DNA of 59,504 bases from Candidatus Aphodenecus pullistercoris (GTDB taxonomy: Bacteria; Spirochaetota; Spirochaetia; Sphaerochaetales; Sphaerochaetaceae). The DNA lies in contig JADIMU010000054.1 in the NCBI GenBank assembly GCA_017694495.1, positions 1-59,504 on the forward strand, written 5' to 3'. The notes beneath the pieces are model-generated. The model saw only the letters and a program-made list of their open reading frames with translations. It was not told where the DNA came from and did no database searches. This document shows positions 23,861 through 59,504 of the stretch, in pieces. The position numbers were made by a program, and so were the translations under genes. Within the stretch, counting starts at the first letter, position 1, and the number at the start of each line of letters is the position of its first letter.

Positions 23861-24232
23861 GGGGGTGTTCCAGTTTCGACTGCCGGCAGAGCAGGCTTGG
23901 GACTGCAGGCCAAGCGACAACTTGTAAAACTATCAAAACAATCAACTGCCAAGAAAGAAGACGATTACGTCTCTGACGAAGCACTCGCTCTCGCTGCCTA
24001 AGCAGTGACTGAGCAACGGCGCCAAGGGTGCTGATCCTAACCTGAGGCTGTCCGACACCAACAGGGTCTTGCCCATCTGAAGCCGTCGGCTGATGGGGAC
24101 GCTTGGACGGCTACCCTTCCAGAGGCCTTGCGCCGCGGGCAAGATGGAGGGGGAAACTGGAACGCGGGGCTAAGCTCTGTAGACGTCTCAGGATGCCACG
24201 GTAGGACGGGAGTGCGATTCTCCCCACCTCCA
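23861..24232 (+). ncRNA. ssrA: Transfer-messenger RNA (tmRNA)
   Basis: The 5' end GGGGGTGTTCCAGTTTCGAC pairs with the 3' end CACCTCC as a 7-bp acceptor stem with a G-U at the third pair, the alanine identity element. The T-arm is GGGAG-TGCGATT-CTCCC and the discriminator is A; genomic TCA follows, so CCA must be added enzymatically. The tag reading frame begins at 23948. Releases stalled ribosomes together with SmpB, encoded just upstream. Confidence 0.93.
23948..24001 (+). other. tmRNA proteolysis-tag reading frame
   Basis: Seventeen codons and a TAA give AKKEDDYVSDEALALAA. The resume codon is GCC (Ala), and the hydrophobic ALALAA end is the usual degradation signal for ClpXP-type proteases. 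Confidence 0.88.
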
Positions 24233-56699: not shown

Positions 56700-57004
56700 T
56701 CTTTCAAAAAAAATTAGATGCTTGTTTACTTCCTGTTTTTGACATGGTCAATTGTGTTACATTGTCCATAATTTACTGCCTCCAGCCTACACTTTCCCAC
56801 TCATTTTCCACAGTATTCTCCCACTATGGCATCAGCTTCCCATTTCAGCCCTCGCGCGCGTGAAGTATATAGTGAATTCAATTTATAACAAGACTTCATA
56901 ATATGTTATTAAATGCTTGAAATATAAGAAATTATTTCCAATTTTCCATTTACATCAGCCCCATTCTAATGCTATCCTCCACGACCAGAAAGGAGAAAAC
57001 TGAA
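56700..57004. other. AT-rich intergenic stretch
   Basis: About 300 bp markedly richer in A and T than the rest of the window. Apart from the RNA-ligase promoter candidate at its right end I see no gene and no repeat array. A single TTTTCCACA at about 56810 differs from the DnaA box by one base and is not taken as an origin. The composition marks the edge of an accessory region. Confidence 0.6.
56949..56978 (+). promoter_or_regulatory. Possible promoter of the RNA ligase gene
   Basis: TTTACA (56949-56954), an 18-nt spacer, TATCCT (56973-56978), then AAAGGAG and the ATG at 57005. Confidence 0.4.
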
Positions 57005-58081
57005 ATGCATGACTTGGCAAAGATTGCGACGATCCAGGCCATCGAGCCCATTCCAGGCAAGGACAGGATCGTCCTGGCAACAGTCGAGAACTACAAGTCG
57101 ATCGTCAAGAAGGACGAGTTCAAGGAAGGAGACAGGGTCATCTACGTCTTCTATGATGCCATCCTCCCTCCCCGACCTGAGTTCGAGTTCCTGCGCACAC
57201 GCTGCTGGAGCGAGAAGTACCAGGGCTTCCGCATCAAACCGATGAAGATGGGTGGTGTCATCAGCGAAGGCCTCGTCGTATCGACCAGCCTGCTTGGAGC
57301 CAAAGGGGACAGCCTCCCCGTGGGAACAGTCGTGACGAAGGAGCTGGGGATCAGGGCCTACGACCCCGATGCCGCCGCACCGAAAATCGAACCTAGGAAA
57401 GCCTGGTGGATGCGCTGCAAACCCCTTGCCCGACTGTTGAGGAAGCTCGGCTTCGGCAAGCCGAAGAAGGCAAAGGGCTACCCTGCCCTGATCCCCAAGG
57501 CCGACGAGGAGAACATCGAGAAGCTGTGGGACAGCATCAGGATGCGCACTGACGAGTTCGTCATCACGGAGAAGATGGAGGGCAGCGCCGCGATGTACAG
57601 CCTCGACCGCAAGGGACGCCTGCACTGCTACTCCCACAACTGGGAGGTAGGCAACTCTGGCATCTGGGGCACAGTCGCCAAGGACAGGGAGATCCGCAAG
57701 GCCCTCCTCACCCTCAGGAAGGCCAAGGGCAAGGACTGGGCGATCGAAGGAGAGATCTGTGGTCCAGGCATCCAGAAGAACATCTACCACTTTTCCGGCT
57801 ATCGTCTCTTCCTCTACGCCGCCTACCGGATCTCTGATGGCAGGAGGGCCAGCTGGAAGGAGCTGAAGGAGATCTCGGCGATCACGGGACTCGAGACGGT
57901 GCCCTTCATCAGGAAGGGACCAGTCCTCCCCTCTCTGGACGAGATGCTCAAGGACTGCGAGGGCAAGAGCTGCCTTCCCGGATGCGGCGATGTCCCCCGC
58001 GAGGGCCTTGTCTGGCGCACCGAGGACGGCAGCCTCCACTTCAAGTGCAAGAGCCGCCCCTACAAGGTATGGTTCGCATAA
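57005..58081 (+). CDS. ATP-dependent RNA ligase, Deinococcus Rnl5 (DraRnl) type
   Basis: 358 residues. The N-terminal OB-fold region (about 1-110, LAKIATIQAIEPIPGKDRIV and EGDRVIYVFYDAILP) is the added domain of this family. The nucleotidyltransferase domain has motif I EKMEGSAA with the AMP-accepting Lys190, motif III-like YRLFLYAAY, motif IV AIEGEICGPGIQKN and motif V FKCKS. DraRnl seals nicks with a 3'-OH RNA end, so a role in RNA repair is likely. AAAGGAG precedes the ATG. It stands beside an OMEGA element in the accessory end of the window. Confidence 0.85.
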   Translation: MHDLAKIATIQAIEPIPGKDRIVLATVENYKSIVKKDEFKEGDRVIYVFYDAILPPRPEFEFLRTRCWSEKYQGFRIKPMKMGGVISEGLVVSTSLLGAKGDSLPVGTVVTKELGIRAYDPDAAAPKIEPRKAWWMRCKPLARLLRKLGFGKPKKAKGYPALIPKADEENIEKLWDSIRMRTDEFVITEKMEGSAAMYSLDRKGRLHCYSHNWEVGNSGIWGTVAKDREIRKALLTLRKAKGKDWAIEGEICGPGIQKNIYHFSGYRLFLYAAYRISDGRRASWKELKEISAITGLETVPFIRKGPVLPSLDEMLKDCEGKSCLPGCGDVPREGLVWRTEDGSLHFKCKSRPYKVWFA

Positions 58082-58173: not shown

Positions 58174-58707
58174 ATGGGTACATTCATCTATATCCAGCCT
58201 GAGGATTGGAAAGGCGTCCAGGGACCAGAGAAGAACACATTCATCAGGCAGGCAGAGAAGCTTTTCCACTTCGGAGGCATGCTGAACTTGAACAACCTGT
58301 GGATTTACGACAAGCCACTATCACTCCTTGATGAGAAATACGAGACGGAAGATGTGGTCTGTTGGAACTACAACGTGATCGATCAGGAGATATGGGAGGA
58401 TGCAGGAGTCGACAAAAAGAGAGGCTGCATATTCAGTGGAAAGGTCGGCTCAGGAATGTTCAACCATGTCGTCACCGCGGCAACCATCCTTGCGGGACAT
58501 TACTCCGAAGAGCCAATCCTGGTCTATGAAGGCTTCAGTAGGATCGCCTCAGACATCTTCATGACAGGTTGGATCAATCAGGTGCTTGGAGAGCATTTTC
58601 CCAGACTTGTCCTAGATGGATGGACAGCCTTCAAGATCAATCACTATGGGAGTCAACGACCTGCAGCACGAGGCTGCAGGCATGAGGAGGAGACTTCGGA
58701 TGCCTGA
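58174..58707 (+). CDS. Unknown protein, 3' end replaced by the OMEGA element
   Basis: The ATG at 58174 has AAAGGAGG upstream. About 159 codons look like a native soluble protein (MGTFIYIQPEDWKGVQGPEK at the start, VSTT-free aromatic-rich body, FPRLVLDGWTAFKIN at the end). I do not recognise the family. From about 58651 the frame continues into the omega RNA and stops at 58705-58707 after about 19 foreign codons (SQRPAARGCRHEEETSDA). The gene therefore appears interrupted; its natural C-terminus would lie beyond the element. Confidence 0.6.
   Translation: MGTFIYIQPEDWKGVQGPEKNTFIRQAEKLFHFGGMLNLNNLWIYDKPLSLLDEKYETEDVVCWNYNVIDQEIWEDAGVDKKRGCIFSGKVGSGMFNHVVTAATILAGHYSEEPILVYEGFSRIASDIFMTGWINQVLGEHFPRLVLDGWTAFKINHYGSQRPAARGCRHEEETSDA
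58631..58650 (+). other. Predicted omega RNA guide segment (host flank)
   Basis: In IscB systems the guide is the 5' end of the omega RNA and derives from the sequence flanking the element's left end. The bases just before the first scaffold stem belong to the interrupted gene and are the expected guide. Length and exact edge cannot be fixed here (family guides are about 16 nt). Confidence 0.45.
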
Positions 58708-59026
58708 CGTTGACTAGCCCCAGTGATGAGGCTCAGTCCTCTGAACTACGTTGGTCGGGAATACATAGGCACCAGTGGATGTGGCTCTAGTCCACTGCTT
58801 CTGCGGTGCATGGCCAAACAGTCCTGTCAGGTAGGGACAGCGCCATGCACGACAAACCCCCTCCAACATGGGCGAAGGGCGACGGAGAGAGAGACTCCGT
58901 GACGGCAGCGGAAAGCCGGCCAAGAAGGCGACATTTCCGCATCCTCCACCAGACGCGCATCAGGGGGCGTCTGGACAGAGGATTGGAACATCCCCCTGAG
59001 ACCCGCCGGCAAGGAGGCATGACGAC
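58651..59026 (+). ncRNA. Omega RNA (HEARO RNA) of an IscB/IsrB element
   Basis: A 376-nt non-coding stretch that folds densely and leads into the nuclease gene. Stems seen: AGTCAACG / CGTTGACT (58651-58658 with 58708-58715) enclosing CCTGCAGC / GCTGCAGG (58660-58667, 58673-58680) and GGCAT / ATGCC; GAGG / CCTC (58728-58741); GTGCATGGC / GCCATGCAC (58806-58814, 58842-58850); ACGGAG / CTCCGT (58882-58900); ATCCTC / GAGGAT around CCAGACGC / GCGTCTGG (58941-58983). Size, position and structure match HEARO RNA. The 3' end overlaps the ribosome site (AAGGAGG, 59011-59017). Confidence 0.85.
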
Positions 59027-59504
59027 ATGGTATACGTACTCAACAGCGACGGCTCTCCCCTCATGCCATGCACCGAGGCCAAGGCGAGGCATCTGATTGA
59101 GAGCGGGAAGGCGAAGGTGGTGAGGAGGACTCCATTCATCATACGCCTCACCTTCCTCGTTGGGGGAGAGGTCAACACAGAATCTGTCACGCTTGGCGTC
59201 GATGCAGGCTCATCCGTGATTGGAGTCAGCGTGACGACGGAAGGCAGGGTCCTGTTCGAGGCGGAGGTGGAGATCAGGCAGGACGTCCCACAGAACATGG
59301 AGGGGAGGCGGTCGAAGCGGAGTGGCAGGCGGAACCGCAAGACCCGTTACAGGGAACAGCGGAGCGACAACAGGAGACGTTCCAAGGGCTGGCTCACTCC
59401 CACGATGGAGACGAAGGTCAGGACCCATGAGAACGTCATCGACAAGGTGTGCTCCATCCTGCCCGTCTCGAGGATCGTCATCGAGAGCGCAACCTTCGAC
59501 ATCC
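59027..59504 (+). CDS. iscB: IscB/IsrB RNA-guided nuclease, N-terminal 159 residues (cut by window edge)
   Basis: AAGGAGG precedes the ATG at 59027. The frame is open to the window end. The PLMP domain is seen in MVYVLNSDGSPLMPCTEAKA (PLMP at 11-14) and VVRRTPFIIRL; the RuvC-I motif TLGVDAGSSVIGVSVT has the catalytic Asp59; an Arg-rich bridge helix covers about 94-120 (RRSKRSGRRNRKTRYR); the RuvC-II strand RIVIES has Glu153. IscB is the IS200/IS605-encoded ancestor of Cas9. The HNH domain would come later, so IscB and the HNH-less IsrB cannot be told apart here. Confidence 0.9.
   Translation, partial: MVYVLNSDGSPLMPCTEAKARHLIESGKAKVVRRTPFIIRLTFLVGGEVNTESVTLGVDAGSSVIGVSVTTEGRVLFEAEVEIRQDVPQNMEGRRSKRSGRRNRKTRYREQRSDNRRRSKGWLTPTMETKVRTHENVIDKVCSILPVSRIVIESATFDI

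What the first reader, a model, noticed from the sequence alone, without database searches (positions are those of the whole stretch)
58631..59504. OMEGA system: omega RNA plus IscB/IsrB nuclease at the right edge
Seen: a PLMP domain, RuvC-I Asp59, an Arg-rich bridge helix and RuvC-II Glu153, directly behind a 376-nt, heavily base-paired non-coding region. Established: IscB proteins use a HEARO/omega RNA encoded just upstream as a guide for DNA cleavage. Inference: this copy is intact as far as visible, since it has a good ribosome site, no stops and both visible RuvC residues. The bridge region is short (no extra zinc insert as in OgeuIscB), which suggests a compact variant. An active IscB in a spirochaete-like genome would be worth characterising.
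Basis: partly seen in the sequence, partly recalled or inferred. Interest (0 to 1): 0.85.

Follow-up and report, generated by a model that had tools for sequence, protein, structure and literature searches.

The report
IscB element inserted at start codons
The window ends inside a genuine IscB/omega-RNA mobile element (a relative of the ancestor of Cas9), and comparison of its copies shows that such elements very often slot in exactly between a host gene's ribosome-binding site and its start codon, so that the host's own leader could supply the guide RNA.

Summary
A HEARO/omega RNA (RF02033, 103.9 bits, cutoff 83) lies at 58652-58887 and the open frame from 59027 is IscB (NCBIfam guided_IscB 194 bits, cutoff 175). 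The gene stops only because the contig stops. Other contigs of the same genome carry the missing HNH and RuvC-III parts, and at least six copies of the element. It is an ordinary, compact (about 419 aa) IscB, already a known kind. What I did not expect is where these elements sit. Both ends were mapped for 62 insertions in Spirochaetales, Sutterellaceae, Firmicutes, Desulfovibrio, Methanolobus and others. The element lies immediately before ATG(A/G). A strict gene caller puts that ATG at a host start codon in 29/62, against 2.2% of all ATG(A/G) sites and 10.6% of those outside genes. The left flank ends in a Shine-Dalgarno at start-codon spacing, which repeats in an independent set. Two empty sites show exact insertion without duplication. 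Host genes include ligA, lepB, nadD, recR, serC, hflC. Inferred: the guide lies outside the element, so host transcription must make it; insertion between SD and ATG supplies that plus the TAM. Activity is untested; prior publication of the pattern could not be excluded.

The parts
58636..58651 (+). putative 16-nt omega-RNA guide: host DNA abutting the element's left end (ATCAATCACTATGGGA)
   Evidence: Copies C42, C2, C58 and C36 are alike from 58652 on and differ upstream; a 5' guide of about 16-17 nt is established for IscB (PMC9640706). Inferred for this copy.
58652..58887 (+). HEARO / omega RNA scaffold; 58652 is the left end of the element
   Evidence: RF02033 103.9 bits; left boundary shared by all copies and confirmed by two empty sites of related copies
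58652..58714 (+). left-end stem (GTCAACG...CGTTGAC) closing the first HEARO helix
   Evidence: MFE fold -29.4 kcal/mol for 64 nt
58888..59026 (+). 3' part of the non-coding region up to iscB
   Evidence: conserved in the C2 and C36 copies
59011..59017 (+). Shine-Dalgarno AAGGAGG of iscB
   Evidence: sequence
59027..59503 (+). iscB, first 159 codons (PLMP, RuvC-I, bridge helix, RuvC-II), cut by the contig end
   Evidence: NF040563 194.1 bits, PF14239 182.9 bits
59201..59203 (+). codon of RuvC-I Asp59
   Evidence: alignment A1
59483..59485 (+). codon of RuvC-II Glu153
   Evidence: alignment A1
58174..58651 (+). host ORF whose 3' part meets the element (no family; no homologue in 15 congeneric genomes)

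Best explanation
A compact IscB mobile element (omega RNA followed by iscB), cut at the contig end. It moves as a single unit with exact joints and no target duplication, landing immediately 5' of ATG(A/G), which is also the expected 3' TAM of its nuclease. IscB loaded with omega RNA would cut the empty site left after excision or present on a sister chromosome (guide = the nucleotides left of the element, TAM = ATGA/ATGG), so that the element is copied back or kept. Because the guide lies outside the element's left end, it can only be made by transcription that starts in host DNA. Insertion between a gene's Shine-Dalgarno and its start codon therefore gives the element a promoter, and the host gene stays translatable through iscB termination next to, or overlapping, the host ATG, or through a Shine-Dalgarno in the right end. 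Shown: HEARO, IscB, copies, exact joints, ATG(A/G), enrichment of SD and start codons at the joints. Inferred: cleavage, retention, host-promoter dependence, translational coupling, and the transposase acting in trans.
For: HEARO and IscB models; full-length relatives match OgeuIscB structures by sequence (E 2.1e-45) and by predicted fold (E 5.5e-26). Own-genome copies. Empty site 1: hflK-hflC is uninterrupted in all 15 congeners (typically GGAGGTGCAAA|ATGAAAAAG) and the two flanks of G000:C10 restore it exactly. Empty site 2, for the window's own element family: a flavodoxin gene intact in G008, its halves found at the left end of C36 and the right end of C19. 62 insertions: 51 open for at least 60 codons at the junction ATG (background 33%); start-like 39/62 against 9.0% of 5524 ATG(A/G) sites, p 4e-25; strict caller 29/62 against 2.2% of all and 10.6% of non-interior sites, p 2e-30 and 2e-15. 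SD binding is strongest exactly at the left boundary in 88 loci (p 3.7e-7) and in 37 independent IMG/VR loci (p 4.6e-7). The junction ATG begins full-length LigA, LepB, NadD, LolC/E, RecR, SerC, RecG, NtrC. The iscB stop overlaps the host start (TGATGA or ATGA) in several families, and right ends of HEARO-only elements carry an SD. TAM NNRR of OgeuIscB fits ATGA/ATGG (PMC9640706).
Against: No cleavage, RNA or transposition data. The window copy's own right end is not in the assembly, and its left flank has no clear SD, so this copy may sit inside a gene. In the window's own family the right end has no SD and the iscB stop lies about 24 nt before the host ATG. About a third of the insertions are not at start codons. 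No transposase is encoded in the element.
Confidence: 0.8

Rival explanations
1. The start-codon pattern is only survivorship: the element needs ATGA/ATGG as target, insertions elsewhere are lost by selection, and start codons are the sites that are tolerated.
For: All junctions carry ATG(A/G); host genes at the junction are intact; the background rises from 2.2% to 10.6% when gene interiors are removed.
Against: Among sites outside genes, start codons are still enriched (29 of 49 against 10.6%, OR 12, p 2e-15); insertions at other intergenic ATG(A/G) sites should be at least as harmless.
Confidence: 0.4
2. Target choice itself favours start codons, e.g. the transposase prefers DNA exposed by transcription or a longer motif that includes the SD.
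For: SD signal exactly at the left boundary in two data sets.
Against: Many insertions have no SD on the left; the SD is what any start codon would have, so it adds no separate motif.
Confidence: 0.2
3. A dead IscB remnant without activity.
For: Truncated and deleted copies exist (C36, C67, G015:C1); copies differ by 1-9%.
Against: All catalytic residues that can be read are intact in the window, C2 and C6; no stops; several congeners carry intact copies at different sites.
Confidence: 0.15
4. IsrB or another HNH-less nuclease.
For: The window part alone does not reach the HNH.
Against: C2 and C6 copies and the full-length relative have the HNH domain (PF01844).
Confidence: 0.02

Closest known systems
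OgeuIscB and its omega RNA (PDB 7XHT, 8CSZ, 7UTN)
   Same: Domain order PLMP, RuvC-I, bridge, RuvC-II, HNH, RuvC-III, C-terminal region; HEARO RNA directly upstream; ATGA/ATGG fits its NNRR TAM
   Different: About 419 against 496 residues, about 30 fewer between bridge helix and RuvC-II; 25% identity in the structural alignment
HEARO elements of Rfam RF02033 and ISC transposons
   Same: HNH ORF plus RNA as one mobile unit; HEARO-only copies; from memory, HEARO insertion 5' of ATGA/GTGA has been described (not checked, paper not held)
   Different: The enrichment at host start codons, between SD and ATG, is measured here; I found no statement of it in the papers held
DtIsrB (PDB 8DMB)
   Same: NTGA TAM (PMC9581776), related fold
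   Different: No HNH domain in IsrB
IS200/IS605 elements with TnpA and TnpB
   Same: Exact insertion without target duplication, hairpins near both ends
   Different: No tnpA in the element; in TnpB elements the guide is at the right end, so a promoter inside the element can make it, whereas here the guide is outside the left end

Membership tests
IscB (OMEGA nuclease) | PLMP domain and split RuvC (I, II) with bridge helix | tested here: met
   Window protein passes NF040563 (194.1 against 175 bits); D59, E153, PLMP in conserved columns
IscB (OMEGA nuclease) | HNH domain and RuvC-III | tested here: met
   Not in the window (contig ends) but in sister copies C2 (HNH) and C6 (HNH, RuvC-III) and in L091
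IscB (OMEGA nuclease) | Omega RNA encoded immediately upstream | tested here: met
   RF02033 103.9 bits, 58652-58887
IscB (OMEGA nuclease) | RNA-guided double-strand cleavage next to a TAM | not testable with these tools
   Only the genomic flank (ATGA/ATGG to the right of the element) could be read
IsrB | Absence of HNH | tested here: not met
   PF01844 in C2, C6, L091
ISC / IS200-IS605-like mobile element | Exact insertion without target duplication | tested here: met
   Empty sites at hflC (15 genomes) and flavodoxin
ISC / IS200-IS605-like mobile element | Hairpins near both ends | tested here: met
   Left stem and right-end stem fold
ISC / IS200-IS605-like mobile element | Y1 transposase TnpA acting on the ends | tested here: inconclusive
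   None in the element; four Y1_Tnp hits elsewhere in the genome, two as tnpA-tnpB pairs

The most novel reading that the evidence does not exclude
IscB elements in many phyla are adapted to live between the Shine-Dalgarno and the start codon of host genes: the host promoter and leader produce the guide-bearing omega RNA, the start codon is the TAM, and the element's right end keeps the host gene translated.
Probability: 0.45. Interest if true: 0.7.

Novelty: new member of a known kind. Interest (0 to 1): 0.5.

Why it matters
IscB is the likely forerunner of Cas9 and is being developed for editing. How its guide is made in nature is not obvious, since the guide lies outside the element. A bias to sites just downstream of host ribosome-binding sites gives a simple, testable answer, lets natural guides and TAMs be read from insertion sites, and would explain how such elements can sit in front of genes such as ligA, lepB and nadD.

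Tried and rejected
Finding the window copy's right end by homology of the flanking ORF 58174-58650: no homologue in 15 congeners, so the copy could not be joined to C6, C40, C61, C13 or C19. Joining C42 to C6 by overlap: the last 167 nt are only 95.8% alike, so C6 is not its exact continuation. Reading C36 as a simple internal deletion: its left flank belongs to the flavodoxin site and its right flank to xerC, and in congeners xerC has a different upstream neighbour, so it is a recombinant of two copies or a misassembly. A replacement SD at every right end: true for HEARO-only and C28-type elements, not for most iscB-bearing ones. Several papers are not held (Weinberg 2009, Altae-Tran 2021, Kapitonov 2016, Meers 2023).

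Full report
What is in the window. The right edge carries a HEARO/omega RNA at 58652-58887 (RF02033, 103.9 bits, all 211 model positions) and, after a further 139 nt, an ATG with a good ribosome site opening a frame of 159 codons that runs to the last base. That fragment alone passes the curated IscB model (NF040563, 194.1 against 175 bits) and RRXRR. The window is the whole contig C42 of a 2.07 Mb, 70-contig, 98.6% complete genome, so the gene is cut by the assembly. The likely reason is visible: other copies of the same element also lie at contig ends.

Copies in the genome. Left ends of the same element: C42 (window), C2, C58, C36, 96-99% alike. Right ends: C6, C40, C61, C13, C19, C36, plus a decayed one in C67; the first five are 91-95% alike. 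C2 reads on through the HNH, and C6 from the bridge through HNH and RuvC-III to a normal stop. More distant relatives are a HEARO-only element in C10 and an IscB in C28. Seven of the 15 congeneric genomes searched have a HEARO match. The closest full-length protein (G015:C7 = L091, 419 aa, uncultured Spirochaetales) has PLMP, D59, Arg-rich bridge, E153, HNH and H297/D300, is related to OgeuIscB in sequence (2.1e-45), and its predicted model (mean pLDDT only 67.5) still finds IscB structures first (5.5e-26). It is shorter than OgeuIscB by about 30 residues between bridge and RuvC-II.

Ends and empty sites. All copies of the family begin with GTCAACGACC; the right end is CCATGAATTTT or a close variant, followed by ATGAA of the host. 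Two empty sites prove the ends. In G000:C10 a 355-nt HEARO-only element splits hflK from hflC; the 15 congeners have the site whole, and the flanks of C10 restore it without loss or duplication, the joint lying between GGAGGTG and the hflC start codon. For the window's own family, the flavodoxin gene whole in G008:C17 is found as two halves at the left end of C36 and the right end of C19, again split exactly before ATGAA.

Insertion at start codons. From one scan of 84,980 species genomes and from the genus, both ends were set for 62 insertions (left end from the Rfam model; right end from copies that share it, 51 cases, or by analogy, 11 cases). The junction ATG opens at least 60 codons in 51/62, against 33% of 5524 ATG(A/G) sites in the same flanks; it looks like a start (long frame to the right, short to the left) in 39/62 against 9.0% (OR 17, p 4e-25). 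Without the 11 single-copy right ends it is 36/51. A crude but strict gene caller, which misses some clear cases such as lepB and ligA, gives 29/62 exact starts, against 2.2% of all sites (OR 40) and 10.6% of sites outside genes (OR 12). By the ORF map about 40 are at a start (my count). Family models confirm that the junction Met is the true start of LigA, LepB, NadD, LolC/E, RecR, SerC, RecG and NtrC. Independently of any choice of right end, binding to anti-SD is strongest exactly at the left boundary: -4.7 against -2.2 kcal/mol in 88 loci (p 3.7e-7) and -5.0 against -1.6 in 37 IMG/VR loci that had played no part in forming the idea (p 4.6e-7). No clear antisense insertion into a host gene was seen.

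Mechanism. The IscB guide is the 5' end of the omega RNA (PMC9640706), that is, host sequence left of the element, so no promoter inside the element can make it. A site between SD and ATG of a gene is transcribed in the right direction. ATGA and ATGG fit the NNRR TAM of OgeuIscB, and ATGA the NTGA of IsrB. That insertions in front of ligA, lepB and nadD persist suggests that the host genes are still translated; iscB stop codons that overlap the host ATG (TGATGA in L097, L099, L125, L126, L145; ATGA in L098) or SDs in the right end (C10, G003:C49, G005:C15, C28, G001:C10, G012:C13) offer a way. These functional steps are inferences. Selection against other sites may explain part of the bias, but by itself it does not obviously account for the excess over other intergenic ATG(A/G) sites.

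Limits. The window copy's right flank is unknown, and its left flank lies in or next to a hypothetical ORF without an evident SD, so this copy may be one of the minority not at a start codon. Right ends of 11 loci rest on analogy. The insertions are separate events at different genes, but they are not a random sample of all IscB elements. Prior publication of the start-codon pattern could not be excluded; key papers are not held, and from memory an ATGA/GTGA insertion motif for HEARO has been described.

Noticed in passing
L141 1655-4738 (Butyrivibrio MAG); also L143, L118, L179: Several HEAROs close together: four in L141 with one iscB, two each in L143, L118 and L179.
   Followed up: no
L083, G015:C1:219930-220621: iscB copy with an in-frame internal deletion leaving a 115-aa frame, complete HEARO, in front of an ATPase start codon.
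   Followed up: partly
L015, G000:C36:3957-4368: HEARO plus about 13 iscB codons fused at a TCCCCTC microhomology to the right end, with flanks from two different sites.
   Followed up: yes
G000:C20:6198 and G000:C33:21746: Two IS605-like tnpA-tnpB pairs in the genome, a possible source of TnpA in trans.
   Followed up: partly
window 56969-58081: Protein with PHA02142 OB-fold and RNA ligase domains, followed by an orphan ORF 58174-58650 found in no congener.
   Followed up: partly
window 23861-24232: tmRNA with tag AKKEDDYVSDEALALAA.
   Followed up: no
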